In this document: piece after piece, positions 1 to 10,709 of the stretch
Layout: each line of letters begins with the position of its first letter
Numbering within the stretch: position 1 is the first letter of the stretch
Origin: Daphnia pulex
Taxonomy: Eukaryota; Arthropoda; Branchiopoda; Diplostraca; Daphniidae
Assembly: GCF_021134715.1 (NCBI RefSeq)
Contig: NC_060021.1
Location: forward strand, 6,324,001 to 6,388,000
DNA length: 64,000 nucleotides
Direction: 5' to 3'
Program-made: the position numbers and the translations under genes
Notes under the pieces: model-generated
Database searches by the model: none
What the model was told of the DNA's origin: nothing
What the model saw: only the letters and a program-made list of their open reading frames with translations

Positions 1-889
1 AACTTGCAGATTAGGCCAATTTTGCACCGGTCAGACAAGTGAAATGCCAAATTCAACATTACGATGGGTCTCCAGAGACATGTTTTCGATAAAAACCAGC
101 CCTTCGGTATGACTTTTCCAAGTGTGCATCGGGAAATACTGCCAAGTGTTAAGTTTTTTTCCTCGAAAATAGATGGCGTGTTATTATTTTGTTTGACTAG
201 TCGTCTGCTTTTCCTTTTTCTTCGTTTGAGCACTGTTTGGTGTTTTCAGTTTTGGATATGATAATTTATGGTAATTTATTAGTGAAATCGTCGTTTTCCA
301 TATTATTGAAACCGAAATATTACAGTTCTGTGGTGACTAATGCAAGGTCTATTAAAAAAAAAAAAAAAAATTATCGGTCGGCCGTTATCATCAAGTCTTC
401 ATTCGTTCTTCAAAACACACAGGTGAATCCACAACAGTTTGTTAAGGATTCCTTGCATTCACTCTATATAATAATCCAATAAATATATATTTTAAGATGA
501 GTTTGTTCGGTAAATGTTTCAAGAACACAGTGCATCCAGCTTTGCAAGATTCAACAAATTAATACTCACTACTCAGTAATAAACTTCACACCAAGATATT
601 AAAATAAGTTTGGCCTAGAAATCAATAGTGGTGAAAACAGCTCATTTTTCACAATTGCGAAAACCCAATCCATTTAATCAAGAGGCAGGTTTCTTCTTTA
701 CTTCAGGTTTATAATTTATTTCCTAACTTGGCGGCTTAATCTGAATCTGACGCAAAAACTAATCTGCTTTTCGTGATGCTCATCAAATTGACTTAAGATT
801 TCATGTTTCCTTGACAAAAATCGTAAAATCGCTGAAATTTGTAAAAAAAAAAACGAAGTCTACAGGAAAATTCACGAATTTTACCAATT
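1..889. other. Non-coding flank left of the inverted repeat
   Basis: I see no supported gene here. The stretch is AT-rich with short A runs (352-369 and 843-853), and its small open frames have no splice-site or motif support. It may contain 5' parts of the spliced transcript proposed for the adjacent repeat arm, since a few short stretches (for example around 310-325) loosely resemble the reverse complement of about 5345-5370. That similarity is too weak to extend the repeat. Confidence 0.4.
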
Positions 890-2438
890 TTCCGTTAATA
901 TTGTAGATTTGCATGTTAAATAGATAAGTCTGAAATAGCTATCTAAATAATTTGAATGTTTCGTCATAGAGAAAGCTGCTTAGCTGCTGGAGTTATCTAG
1001 TCTTTATCCTCACTTGATTAATTTCGTGCCAGCTACTGAAAAAAGGTCGTGACGAATTCAAATTTAGCTGCGTGCTGTCTGCAAACAAGCAATCCAGTTG
1101 GCTGTCGCTAGGTGGCTAAAATGATGTCCACCAGGTTGCGCGAGTGTCTTCAGGGACAAATGGGCTGCTGGTCGTGACGTTGTCACGAGTCGTGCGTGCG
1201 TCGTCCAAATGTCCAATGCACCAGCAAATGTAAGTATTTTTATCCAATTTCCTACTAAAGTACTAAGTCAATATGACTAGAGATCAATTTGCAATTGTAA
1301 TGCCTTGCCAACTATAACTTCCTTTGTAAAATTTGAGATATCATTCTGTTGTAATGTGTAGTTTTCTTTTACTCCTGGTATTCTTTTGTCATAATAAGTC
1401 ATGTGTAATTGTGTACACACTATGTTTTCCTATGGTAATTTTTATACTTCCTTAAATAGGTCTGTGCTGGTTACTTTGTTGCAGCCAGCTGGCGATAGGT
1501 TTTCCTTTTGCAGGCTTGCTACCTGTACTGGTTGCAACTTTTGTCACATACAGAAACAATTCTAAAGCGGGTAAGGGAATCGTGAGAATTGTGGCTTTTC
1601 GAAAAGTCCATTTTCTAATCTGCTTTAATTCAGTTTTTAAAAGCAAGTCGAAGATCTTTCCTTTCTCCATTTTTTTGCTGCCCTGTTATGAAGATGTGTG
1701 TTTGACAGTGTCTACTATATATTGCAAGACAAAAATGTGATGAAAACAGACAATATGAAATGGTAATATGTACTAGTATGATAAATCAAGTAGGCTAGCA
1801 TTTTGTTCTTGGTGTCGAAGATAAGTGAAATCTTATTTTGTGCTTCAAAATAGCCTTAGTGGAAAGTTCTTGCAAAGAGTTGTACATTTTTTTAATGAAG
1901 TAAAACAGAAATTCCCTTTATTTTTAAAAACCTGCAGAATTGAAATCTTTGTGATGTGATGATCTTTGATCACTTTGATTTCTTTTTCTCTAGTTAAGTG
2001 TATATTAAAAGTAAATCATTATTGGTATCTTTTTTTCACATTTCCAAATGTTATTGGTTTATTAATGTTCTTTTACTTTGTAGGTCTCCATGGTCAGTTT
2101 GGTGGTACAGTGGTTTTGCAGTCATTTTCCAGTTGAGAGATGTGCTGAAATGGAGCTTGTGCAGACTTGCAGTTCAACACCATACTTTAATGTGTCATTT
2201 GCCTATTTTGAAATCCATGCAGTATATGCAGTGCAACAGTTGGGTAATAGTCAATGTTGCCTGATGGCTGTCGGGCTTATTTTATCGGCTTCGTTTTGTC
2301 GATATGTCGTCTCTTGCTACCTGTACTGACGTTTAGGTAATGCTTGAAGTTTTGTTCAGTTGTCGACTTTTAATTAAAATATTTTCTTTTTTTTTTTCAG
2401 TTTAATCGTTGCTGCTGTTCCATATACTTGACCCATTG
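890..2438 (+). repeat. Left arm of a long inverted repeat
   Basis: This roughly 1.55 kb arm matches the reverse complement of 2974-4495 almost throughout, with scattered substitutions and small indels. One example is an extra stretch near 1540-1565 (ending ...attctaaagcgg) that is absent from the other arm. The outer end is blurred: clear similarity starts near the taatattgtagattt stretch at about 896. The inner end is sharp, at the ...cttgacccattg sequence ending at 2438. The spacer between the arms is about 535 bp. This was read by eye; no alignment was computed. Confidence 0.9.
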
Positions 2439-2500
2439 TACCGGACGATCTGTTTAATACAATTTGTTATATTAATTGTTTGTAATTCTAATTTTTATGT
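1010..2500 (+). ncRNA. Candidate spliced non-coding transcript, left copy
   Basis: Good splice sites define a possible four-exon transcript on the plus strand: exon to 1229 (donor GTAAGT), 1460-1570 (donor GTAAGG), 2084-2336 (donor GTAATG) and from 2401 (acceptor after a long T tract). Each of these sites is kept at the mirrored position in the right arm. The only sizeable frame in exon 3 differs between copies by a 2-base indel near 2230, so a protein is unlikely. The function is unknown. A 3' end near 2500 is a guess from the AT-rich sequence that follows. Confidence 0.45.
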
Positions 2501-2572
2501 GATTTATTAATTAAATTCGAAACATATTTTTATTAAATGTTTTTTATTTATTAAAAAGACCGTCCGGTACAA
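2436..2572. mobile_element. MITE-like AT-rich element at the repeat centre
   Basis: A 137 bp AT-rich block is bounded by near-perfect terminal inverted repeats of about 23 bp. The left end starts TTGTACCGGACG and the right end is the reverse complement of the same sequence, with two mismatches across the 23 bp. It has no coding capacity. It sits exactly where the left arm stops matching the right arm. I see no convincing target-site duplication, so MITE is the best description but not proven. Confidence 0.5.
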
Positions 2573-2973
2573 GCTGCAGCCAGTCGAGCAGGGGGTGACA
2601 CTGCCCGACTGACTCGACCAGGAAGATTACCCGGCCATGGTTAAGAGAAACCGGAAAAAGAGCGAAGAGAGTTGAGGAGTAGTTATTATGAGAGCAGTGT
2701 GTCATAGTAGGCTTCCGGCTTAGACTCATGACCCTTCAACAGATTTCATCGAATCATGCGCCTTGCAAGTCCCCGTTCGACCAAACATCTCCCTTCCTCC
2801 TGGTTGTCGCAGCGAGTGAGTGACCACTGGCGGGCGTTGGTTAGTGGTTATTTAGGGAAACGGGGCCACTGAAGAAGGGAGCCCAGATATGCGCTTTAAT
2901 TTATATCTACATCTACATAATTTATTGACGAAATGACGAGTCTTGAATTTCAGCAATCTCTCCTCAGTGTTAC
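2573..2973. other. Unique spacer between repeat arms
   Basis: About 400 bp of single-copy sequence lies between the MITE-like block and the right arm. It contains a possible polyadenylation signal for the minus-strand copy: AATAAA read on the minus strand near 2920-2930. There is also a GC-richer portion (2580-2870) with no coding signal that I can support. Confidence 0.35.
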
Positions 2974-4390
2974 CAATGGATCAAGTATATGGAACGGCAG
3001 CAACGATTAAACTGAAAAAAAAAAAGAAAATATTTTAATTAAAAGTCAATAACTGAACGAAACTTCAAGCATTACCTAAACGCCAGTACAGGTAGCAAGA
3101 GACGACATATCGACAAAACGAAGCCGATAAAATAAGCCCGACAGCCATCAGGCAACATTGACTATTACCCAACTGTTGAACACTGCATATACTGCATGGA
3201 TTTCAAAATAGGCAAATGACACATTAAAGTATGGTATTGAACTACAAGTCTGCACAAGCTCCATTTCAGCACATCTCTCAACTGGAAAATGACTGCAAAA
3301 CCACTGAACCACCAAACTGACCATGGACATGCACCTACAAAGCAAAAGAACATTAATAAACCAATAACATTTGGAAATGTGAAAAAATATACCAATAATG
3401 ATTTACTTTTTATAAACACTTAACTAGAGAAAAAGAAATCAAAGTGATCAAAGGTCATCACATCAGAAAAATTTCCAGGTTTTTTTTAAATAAAGGGAAT
3501 TTCTGTTCTGCTTCATAAAAAAAATTTACAACTCTTTACAAGAACTTTCCACAAAAGCTCTATTTTGAAGCACGACATAAGATGTCACTTGTCTTCGACA
3601 TCAAGAACAAAATGCTAGCCTACTTGATTTATCATACTAGTACATTATTACCTTTTCAGATTTTCTGTTTTCATAACATTTTTGTCTTGCAATATATAGT
3701 AGAGACCCTCTCAAACACGCATTTTCATAACAGGGCAGCAAACAAATGGAGAAAGGAAAGATCTTCGACTTGCCTTTAAAAACTGAATTAAAGCAGATTA
3801 GAAAATGGACTTTTCGAAAAGCCACAACTCTCATGATTCCCTTACCCGCTGTGACGAAAGTTACAACCAATACCTACGGCTAGCAACTAGCAAGCCTGCA
3901 AAAGGAACACCTATCACCAGCTGGCTGCAACAAAGTAACCAGCACAGACCTTTTTAAAGAAATATAAAAATTACCATAGGGAAACACAGTGTGTGCACAG
4001 TTACACATGACTCATTATGACAAAAGAACACCAGGAGTAAAAGAAAACTACACATTACAACAGAATGATATCTCAAATTTTACAAAAGAAGTTATAGTTG
4101 GCAAGGCATTACAATTGCAAATTGATATCTAGTCATGTTGACTTAGTACTTTAGTAGGAAATTGGATAAAAATACTTACATTTGCTGGTGCATTGGACGA
4201 CGCACGAATACAGACGTCACGATCAGCATTCTGAAGACACTCGCGCAACCTGGTGGACATCATTTTAGCCACCTAGCGACAGCCAATTGGATTGCTTGCT
4301 TGCAGACAGCACGCAGCTAAATTTGAATTCGTCACGACTTTTTTTCACTAGCTGGCACGAAATGAATCAAGTAAGGATAAAGACTAGATT
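2915..4390 (-). ncRNA. Candidate spliced non-coding transcript, right copy
   Basis: On the minus strand the same exon pattern as in the left arm is visible: exon ending at 4180 (donor GTAAGT), 3846-3949, 3076-3334 and a last exon from 3011. Every GT and AG is retained. Small indels relative to the left copy (for example two extra bases near 3176-3180 and changes just after the acceptor at 3334) shift any reading frame, so a structural or non-coding role is more likely than a protein. It would be transcribed towards the left copy (convergent). Confidence 0.45.
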
Positions 4391-4495
4391 ATTCCAGCAG
4401 CTTTCCCTATGACACAAAACACAAATGATTTAGTTAGCTATTTCAGATTTTCCTTAACTTCTCAACATAAAAATCTATGATATTAACAGAAAGTA
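2974..4495 (-). repeat. Right arm of a long inverted repeat
   Basis: This is the reverse complement of 890-2438. The arm starts at the caatggatcaag sequence (2974) and clear similarity fades around 4490. It differs from the left arm by point changes and small indels, so the duplication is not brand new and is not a trivial assembly mirror. The arms could fold into a stem of about 1.5 kb if co-transcribed. Confidence 0.9.
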
Positions 4496-5490
4496 TGAAA
4501 TTATGAATCACGATAAAAAATAATACTTACAATTTTCTGAAGAAAAGAATAATTTTTCAGCCTTTGGCTGTAAGGCAGCAGCAGCATCGGTTTATCTGTG
4601 TTTGAGTTCCAACTAACTTTGGCATCAAACAGTTAGTTATGTTGAATCTAAAAGAAATATGTCAATAAATATTCCAATATTATTGCTATAAACTAAAGTT
4701 ATTGCAACCTACTGCTTTAGTAAAATATTGAGAAAAATACAATACATATTGGTATGTGCCCTGCATCTTTTCATGTGACTTTCTTCCCCAAAGTTGCTGC
4801 AATCTATCTGAGGATTACCCATGGCCTTGATTATGTTCTCGTAGCTTTCTCTATGAAAGAAAATAAAGTTTATCACATATTCACATTAAAAAAAGTTAAA
4901 AAATTCTTTAAGAAAGAATAATACTTGTCTGTCACTGCATTATTTGTAGAAAAAACATGTTCAGAAAAAATAACACATGTCCACACTAAGTTAGTGACCT
5001 AACAAGATCAATAGAAACTCCAGAAAATATCAACTAAATTGGTGAGGAGGTATTCACAAAATTGTGATTCAGCTATTATTGGTTTAAAACTCTCAAGACT
5101 GCTCAACGTCAATAAGTGTTGAGAAACACGGTGAAGTAAAATCAAGTGTTACTTCTGACTCGTGAAACCGCATAGGTATCACGCCGGATCACTTTCCAAT
5201 TTCCGATCACACACGACTTGCTGATGCTTGACTTAATCACGGATTCCTTGCAGTACACAAGAAAGCAATGAATACTAAATAATTCGAGAGAAGAACTAGA
5301 GTTCTTTACGAAATTAACCAAAAAAAGGATAAAAATTGCAAAGGTTCCCAAAAAATTTCTGCTGTAATATTTAGGCTGAAGAACCAAAACAAAACAAACG
5401 AAAAGCAAACACCGTACAACGACAGCAACGTAAGAAAAAAAAATGTCGACTTTTTAAGTTTAACGCCAACGACTCCATGAATCCAGATTA
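4496..5490. other. Intergenic, between the repeat and POLR3A
   Basis: About 1 kb of AT-rich sequence with no supported gene. It contains the 3' flank of the minus-strand POLR3A gene at its right edge and may contain 5' exons of the minus-strand repeat transcript at its left edge. An 88-codon minus-strand frame at 5142-5408 has no recognisable motif and composition like its surroundings, so I do not call it. Confidence 0.4.

Positions 5491-10709
<5,219 letters not shown>

What the first reader, a model, noticed from the sequence alone, without database searches (positions are those of the whole stretch)
890..4495. Convergent spliced transcripts inside a 1.5-kb-arm inverted repeat
Two arms of about 1.5 kb match as reverse complements, and four splice acceptor/donor pairs are preserved in both. 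Splice-site conservation suggests selection on a processed RNA rather than a passive duplication. Convergent or read-through transcription would give long double-stranded RNA, so this could be a natural hairpin-siRNA or antisense locus.
Basis: partly seen in the sequence, partly recalled or inferred. Interest (0 to 1): 0.7.

Follow-up and report, generated by a model that had tools for sequence, protein, structure and literature searches.

The report
Tail-to-tail pair of a repeated gene
The mirror-image DNA is real, but it is a worn-down, tail-to-tail pair of copies of a gene-like repeat with many relatives in this genome, some of which sit in bigger and much more perfect mirror-image blocks; nothing here shows that it makes silencing RNA.

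Summary
The inverted repeat is real: arms 889-2438 and 2974-4492, 88.7% identical over 1,579 alignment columns. Three introns (not four) keep GT/AG in both arms, but between the arms introns are as well conserved as exons, so the arms alone give no sign of selection on a processed RNA.

The arms are two tail-to-tail copies of a dispersed, gene-like repeat: a 30-base core of its last exon has 360 genome matches (reversed control 0), a first-exon motif 165 (control 0). Across 17 copies the splice dinucleotides are kept in nearly all that cover them. Exon 3 has frame-breaking indels and no codon periodicity.

Some relatives lie in large palindromes beside tyrosine-rich protein genes. Of 37 neighbouring tyrosine-rich pairs, 33 are convergent. 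In the three convergent palindromes read, arms are 97-99% identical; other units differ more (median 84%), with exceptions.

Here no tyrosine-rich frame remains and arm 1 lacks parts at both ends. Arm 1 starts at a junction where relatives also swap sequence, so mobility is a serious rival. Hairpin-siRNA production is possible but untested.

The parts
889..2438 (+). arm 1: copy of the repeat, inferred exons 1-4, lacking exon 0 and exon 5
2974..4492 (-). arm 2: homologous stretch of the second copy, opposite strand
970..1229 (+). arm 1 inferred exon 1, with the motif TCCACCAGGTTGCGCGAGTGTCTTC at 1127-1151
1460..1570 (+). arm 1 inferred exon 2
2084..2336 (+). arm 1 inferred exon 3 (frame-breaking indels across copies)
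2401..2438 (+). arm 1 inferred exon 4; then joined to TACCGGACG, TTG being shared by both would-be breakpoints; intron 4 and exon 5 missing
4531..5085 (-). upstream region / putative exon 0 of the arm 2 copy (donor GT at 4530-4529); parts of it are homologous in L013, L014, L015, L023, L024 and L031; absent from arm 1
4180..4406 (-). arm 2 inferred exon 1 (motif at 4233-4257)
3846..3949 (-). arm 2 inferred exon 2
3076..3334 (-). arm 2 inferred exon 3
2974..3011 (-). arm 2 inferred exon 4; arm homology ends exactly here
2551..2868 (-). putative exon 5 / conserved core of the arm 2 copy, 93% identical across covering copies; 360 genome matches to a 30-base pattern inside it
2436..2551 (.). AT-rich centre with inverted TACCGGACG ends; AATAAA 3 on the minus strand, 0 on the plus strand (2 ATTAAA); a similar centre lies beside the core in relatives

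Best explanation
The locus is two tail-to-tail paralogous copies of a dispersed, intron-bearing and apparently non-coding repeat gene ('unit A'). Shown: the two copies, the genomic relatives, the kept intron sites across the family, and that some relatives lie in large convergent palindromes with tyrosine-rich reading frames. Inferred: unit A is transcribed from its upstream exon and spliced into a non-coding RNA that ends at the conserved last exon and its AATAAA tail; the pairing arose by inverted duplication; palindrome arms elsewhere are kept alike by gene conversion, or were duplicated recently. This window copy is an old remnant: its arms have drifted to 89%, no tyrosine-rich frame remains, and arm 1 lacks its upstream exon and, probably by a 3-bp microhomology deletion, its last exon. 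If anything is transcribed here, the likeliest is a minus-strand RNA from the arm 2 copy.
For: Multi-copy: 103 alignments with the locus as query (a place can count twice because both arms match; 40 of 839 candidates scored); exon-3/4 query 40 places, 40 of 176 candidates scored; core pattern 360, control 0; first-exon motif 165, control 0. Splice sites kept across 17 copies. Non-coding: no codon-phase signal in exon 3 (0.088/0.067/0.082; 18 rows, arm 1 left out), indels not in threes (19 rows); spliced-model reading frames of 79 and 60 aa reached by 95 and 455 of 1000 shuffles. Orientation: 37 neighbouring tyrosine-rich pairs under 20 kb, 33 convergent, 2 divergent, 2 tandem (all 150 rows listed); 27 of the 33 have equal scores; core pairs 8 of 8 and hairpin pairs 6 of 6 convergent. 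Palindrome arms 99.3, 97.4 and 98.2%, between-unit median 84.3%, n = 134. Centres of two palindromes are homologous. Arm 1's missing parts.
Against: No transcript evidence. Between the arms introns are as conserved as exons; across copies exons 2 and 3 (80-83%) are no better conserved than introns 2-4 (80-82%), and exons 0-2 are covered by a mean of only 2-6 of 17 copies. L021, left out, lacks the exon-0 GTAAGT donor. The exon 5 acceptor is absent in the commonest core subtype (L032, L034), so exon 5 may be a promoter or other DNA element. With exon limits one base off, arm 1 gave a 102-aa frame that only 12 of 500 shuffles reached; alternative acceptors were not tested. Not every unit pair fits the gene-conversion picture: copies from different places can be as alike as arms (L014/L015 97.8%, L014/L016 95.0%, L021/L024/L026 96.9-99.0%). 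P1 has an unrelated 2.75-kb centre, and a second subfamily is divergent (L030). The core is identical over 250 nt in two copies whose flanks fall to 54-96%, and arm 1 begins at a junction shared by the family: both suit a mobile element.
Confidence: 0.57

Rival explanations
1. A hairpin-RNA (endo-siRNA) locus: read-through across both arms folds into a long duplex that Dicer cuts into 21-22-nt RNAs aimed at family members.
For: 1.5-kb arms, 88.7% identical; 152 of 231 exon-3 21-mers shared by the arms and 107 of 231 found in fetched relatives; arm 1's strand has no AATAAA in the centre. Fly hpRNAs can accumulate as discrete spliced RNAs (PMC10317233, passages seen).
Against: Arm 1 lacks the upstream exon; arm 2's strand has three AATAAA before arm 1; the arms have been allowed to drift; exon 1 shares no 21-mer with fetched relatives (0 of 229). 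No small-RNA data.
Confidence: 0.13
2. A non-autonomous transposable element family (foldback-like), whose mobility rather than gene duplication explains the copies.
For: 360 dispersed core matches; core identical over 250 nt between L032 and L034 while flanks fall to 54-96%; a recurrent sharp junction: arm 1 starts at the point (889/4492) where arm 2, L031 and L021 pass from exon-0 sequence to TTNCTGTTAATA, and where L014, L015, L023 (same upstream) and L017, L018 (another upstream) pass to CCCCAATCTC; inverted motif ends of the centre.
Against: The centre is not seen dispersed alone: 17 of its 22 strong matches adjoin a top-40 core match, and one of the five exceptions (C2:1553148) adjoins a core pattern match. 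No transposase-like Pfam hit in the five ORFs tested (few). Target-site duplications were not sought systematically.
Confidence: 0.28
3. A passive, wholly dead inverted duplication: pseudogene debris with no transcription.
For: Arms drift alike in exons and introns; arm 1 lacks both ends; no clear coding frame.
Against: The three shared introns still have GT/AG in both arms; the arm 2 copy retains upstream exon, introns and last exon.
Confidence: 0.3
4. Assembly artefact.
For: Inverted repeats are known assembly hazards (general knowledge).
Against: The arms differ at 11% of alignment columns and continue differently at both ends.
Confidence: 0.01

Closest known systems
Gene palindromes in arthropod and rotifer genomes (Folsomia candida 11 palindromes; Adineta vaga 17, both as stated in PMC5490193, passages seen)
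   Same: Inverted duplicates of gene blocks in an invertebrate genome; gene conversion discussed as a cause of arm similarity.
   Different: Here palindromes share a repeated unit and mostly one orientation; the window copy is far smaller and its arms have diverged. The Folsomia authors found a wide Ks range and say concerted evolution does not explain their blocks.
Mammalian sex-chromosome palindromes with arm-to-arm gene conversion (PMC3723533, PMC8981503; search listing only)
   Same: Arms of the three convergent palindromes read here are 97-99% identical.
   Different: Dispersed over many contigs; the window arms are only 89% identical.
Drosophila hairpin RNAs (PMC10317233, passages seen)
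   Same: Long inverted repeat overlapping inferred spliced exons and homologous to other genomic loci.
   Different: No small RNAs, no continuous transcript and no target shown here.
MITEs / foldback elements (general knowledge)
   Same: Inverted motifs around an AT-rich centre; a recurrent sharp junction at the outer end of the arms.
   Different: The centre is not seen dispersed by itself; no target-site duplication shown.

Membership tests
Hairpin RNA (hpRNA) locus | Long inverted repeat with high arm complementarity | tested here: met
   88.7% over 1,579 columns
Hairpin RNA (hpRNA) locus | One primary transcript crossing both arms | not testable with these tools
   no RNA data; three AATAAA on the arm 2 strand before arm 1 argue mildly against, none on the other strand
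Hairpin RNA (hpRNA) locus | Dicer-dependent 21-22-nt siRNAs | not testable with these tools
   no small-RNA data
Hairpin RNA (hpRNA) locus | Target with near-perfect complementarity elsewhere | tested here: inconclusive
   exon 3: 107 of 231 21-mers in fetched relatives, exon 1: 0 of 229; shared ancestry alone explains this
Palindrome maintained by gene conversion | Arms much more alike than paralogous units | tested here: not met
   window arms 88.7% against a between-unit median of 84.3%, range 76.8-96.4; three other palindromes 97.4-99.3%, though five pairs of different places also reach 95.0-99.0%
MITE / foldback transposon | Terminal inverted repeats | tested here: inconclusive
   inverted TACCGGACG motifs around the centre; the arms themselves are inverted
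MITE / foldback transposon | Common outer boundary | tested here: inconclusive
   arm 1 begins at a junction where sequence changes also in L014, L015, L017, L018 and L023; few copies examined
MITE / foldback transposon | Target-site duplications | not tested
   not sought systematically
Known structured RNA family (Rfam 15) | Match at the curated threshold | tested here: not met
   0 matches in the 64 kb window; two matches of E 3.8 and 4.4 in 800-5200
Protein-coding gene family | Conserved reading frame across copies | tested here: not met
   exon 3 and core: no phase signal, frame-breaking indels; alternative acceptors not tested

The most novel reading that the evidence does not exclude
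This genome carries a system of dozens of dispersed, mostly convergent palindromic cassettes (unit A, tyrosine-rich gene, mirror copy), possibly mobile, whose arms are homogenised within each palindrome and whose non-coding units carry a conserved first-exon motif (TCCACCAGGTGGCGCGAGTGTCTTC) resembling a CTCF site (resemblance recalled, not tested). The units could act as paired boundary or conversion-promoting elements around a secreted-protein gene family; the window would be a decayed cassette.
Probability: 0.12. Interest if true: 0.75.

Novelty: new variant of a known kind. Interest (0 to 1): 0.42.

Why it matters
The window locus itself is a modest relic. Its family matters more: a repeated, intron-bearing, apparently non-coding unit that recurs in convergent palindromes, some with nearly identical arms, would be a natural set of replicates for studying inverted duplication, gene conversion and mobility in an animal genome. 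It would also warn annotators that a convergent 'spliced antisense' locus here may simply be a pair of paralogues.

Tried and rejected
Rejected: selection inferred from splice sites between the two arms (introns equally conserved). Rejected: an unusually stable fold in the core (z-scores -0.06, 0.72, 1.14 and 0.09 for two subtypes on both strands). Rejected: coding core or exon 3. Rejected: the centre as an independent MITE. Rejected: a general link of the second core subtype with a small secreted-protein cluster at C1:5.39 Mb; 13 of that protein's 14 matches are on C1, 7 of them in one cluster, no Pfam hit. Led nowhere: phage DNA search, tRNA scan, Rfam E-value search of L032, which gave 11 matches, all below their thresholds and the best to plant long-hairpin miRNA models. 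Paper searches (listings of 10-15 rows seen) showed no report in their listed rows of such palindromes in Daphnia. This covers an open-licence library only, and the species is my recollection from genome size and contig number, not a test.

It also said AATAAA stands on both strands of the centre; one search shows it on one strand only.

Rows dropped: one search used 130 of the 150 rows listed (158 matches; 150 of 1416 candidates scored); one search repeated the orientation count on all 150. One search used 17 of 22 fetched copies (L011, L015, L021, L026 and L027 left out as near-identical to others). One search used 17 of 20 fetched loci plus both arms (L021, L024, L026 lack that part). One search kept 8 special pairs out of its 134 (3 palindrome mates, 5 pairs of different places at 95.0-99.0%). 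Searches scored only 40 of 455, 176 and 231 candidates.
Full report
OBSERVATION. The inverted repeat is real. BLAST of the window's first 8 kb against the window gives one pair of arms, 889-2438 and 2974-4492 (reverse strand), 1400 of 1579 columns identical (pieces also), with no other pair of separate inverted arms of 100 nt or more in the 64 kb at E <= 1e-10. Intron identity between the arms (94.8, 92.9, 95.4%) is as high as exon identity (88.9, 92.3, 98.0, 94.7%; gaps excluded), so the arms alone do not show selection on a processed RNA.

WHAT IT IS. The window is C5:6324001-6388000 of a 133.2-Mb genome in 13 contigs. Size and contig number would fit Daphnia pulex; that is recalled and was not tested. 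The locus gives 103 alignments in this genome, with only 40 of 839 candidates scored and some places counted once per arm; the exon-3/4 query alone hits 40 places with 40 of 176 candidates scored. A 30-base pattern inside the most conserved part (2551-2868) has 360 genome matches at up to 3 mismatches, 0 in the reversed control; this counts the core, not whole units, since the four loci fetched for the commonest core subtype match the window only from about 2700 to 2985. A 25-base motif in exon 1 has 165 matches at up to 2 mismatches, control 0. The arms are thus two members of a large dispersed family, placed tail to tail.

GENE-LIKE ANATOMY. Using 17 of 22 fetched copies, exon 5 is 93% identical to the window and exon 4 89%, introns 2-4 80-82%; exons 2 and 3 (80-83%) are no better conserved than introns. 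Yet the splice dinucleotides are kept: D3 and A3 in 16 of 16 covering copies, D2 5/5, A1 4/4, D0 4/4, D1 3/3, D4 15-16/16, A2 13-14/14, A0 2/3, all with flanks at 79-87%, and A4 13/14 with flanks at 98%. This is evidence for genuine introns at the level of the family, although coverage upstream is thin, the copies are related, and L021 (left out there) lacks the exon-0 GTAAGT donor. Exon 3 in 19 aligned rows has indels that are not multiples of three and no codon-phase signal in 18 rows. The best reading frames of the spliced models (79 and 60 aa) are reached by 95 and 455 of 1000 shuffles; a first try with limits one base off gave 102 aa for arm 1, reached by 12 of 500 shuffles, and alternative acceptors were not tested. 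The unit therefore looks non-coding. The core shows no unusual folding energy, and the window has no Rfam match at threshold.

STATE OF THE WINDOW COPY. The arm 2 copy continues upstream into sequence parts of which are shared with L013, L014, L015, L023, L024 and L031, with a donor at 4530. Arm 1 lacks it and begins at a junction that recurs in the family: at the same point arm 2, L031 and L021 pass from exon-0 sequence to TTNCTGTTAATA, while L014, L015 and L023 (same upstream) and L017 and L018 (another upstream) pass to CCCCAATCTC. At its other end arm 1 stops exactly at the end of exon 4 and is joined to TACCGGACG; TTG stands at both would-be breakpoints, so a 3-bp microhomology deletion of intron 4 and exon 5 is the simplest account (inference). 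The AT-rich centre has three AATAAA on arm 2's strand and none on arm 1's, which has two ATTAAA. Relatives have a similar inverted-motif centre next to the core: 17 of 22 strong matches adjoin a core copy from the top-40 list. L023 seems to keep a piece of a partner's last exon there (my reading), so tail-to-tail pairing may be old in the family.

PALINDROMES ELSEWHERE. One relative pair lies in a 22-kb palindrome at C2:1462086-1484430 with 9.8-kb arms 99.3% identical around a 2.75-kb centre. Two others, at C2:3.81 Mb and C1:4.67 Mb, are near-continuous palindromes of about 10 and 13 kb at 97.4 and 98.2%; a fourth on C3, where the units point apart, has arms of at least 1.8 kb at 99.9%. These four are the only ones read. 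Between other units the median identity of the best alignment over 600 nt is 84.3% (134 pairs, 76.8-96.4%), but five pairs of different places set aside there reach 95.0-99.0% (L014/L015, L014/L016 and the three among L021, L024, L026). Of 20 fetched loci, 10 carry tyrosine-rich reading frames found by composition; L010 and L011 have others by inspection. A search with one such frame gave 158 matches, several with stops inside. In all 150 rows listed (130 merged places) 37 neighbouring pairs lie within 20 kb: 33 convergent, 2 divergent, 2 tandem; 27 of the 33 have equal scores. Core pairs are 8 of 8 and hairpin pairs 6 of 6 convergent. The centres of two palindromes are homologous, although their middle spacers differ. 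Arms alike within a palindrome while most units are unlike between palindromes is what arm-to-arm gene conversion would give; recent inverted duplication is the alternative and is not excluded. The window has no tyrosine-rich frame by the same test and its arms are ordinary in divergence, so it is not itself a maintained palindrome.

MECHANISM. Most likely (inferred): unit A is a non-coding, spliced transcription unit of uncertain function that was multiplied together with its neighbours; the window holds a degraded tail-to-tail pair, of which the arm 2 copy is the more complete. A hairpin RNA would require read-through between the arms. This is possible, since exon 3 is 98% identical between the arms, but it is untested. 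The transposon rival is serious: the core is identical over 250 nt in L032 and L034 while flanks fall to 54-96%, and the outer junction recurs.

KNOWN KINDS. Gene palindromes are reported in Folsomia and Adineta (PMC5490193, passages), and fly hairpin RNAs can be spliced (PMC10317233, passages). My searches listed no paper on this family; the library is partial, only 10-15 rows of each listing were seen, and the species is unconfirmed.

Noticed in passing
G000 C2:1462086-1484430 (L010, L029, L011): A 22-kb palindrome, 9.8-kb arms 99.3% identical, with a 400-aa ORF (weak zf-RVT similarity, below Pfam's cutoff) in the unrelated 2.75-kb centre.
   Followed up: partly
L032 1686-2185, L033 1648-2147, L034 1642-2161, L035 1674-2205: In the four loci fetched, the commonest core subtype is followed by a palindrome of about 500 bp (86-92% self-complementary) and, in the two printed (L032, L034), then the ACCGGACG motif; if transcribed it would form a long hairpin, perhaps a better siRNA candidate than the window locus.
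   Followed up: partly
window 1127-1151 (+) and 4233-4257 (-); 165 genome matches: The conserved first-exon motif resembles the CTCF consensus (recalled); divergent pairs of it occur, one at a palindrome centre read here (C1:4668861-4669086) and others unread (e.g. C12:9822942-9823678).
   Followed up: partly
L021, L024, L026; C7:7531, C12:35142, C9:43473, C9:9566642, C7:12214836: Five copies within 70 kb of contig ends match the arm only up to 2091, near the start of exon 3, and then diverge: a possible subtelomeric subfamily with a different 3' part (three of the five fetched).
   Followed up: partly
L019 and L023; C1:3507783/3509848, 4138121/4140205, 4843815/4845925, 7421887/7423986: The two core subtypes lie 2.07-2.11 kb apart on the same strand at these four C1 places, and about 2.0-2.5 kb apart in L019 and L023.
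   Followed up: no
window 8220-10420 (-): Reading frames of an RNA polymerase largest-subunit gene (Pfam Rpb1 domains 1-3) lie upstream of arm 2 on the same strand.
   Followed up: partly
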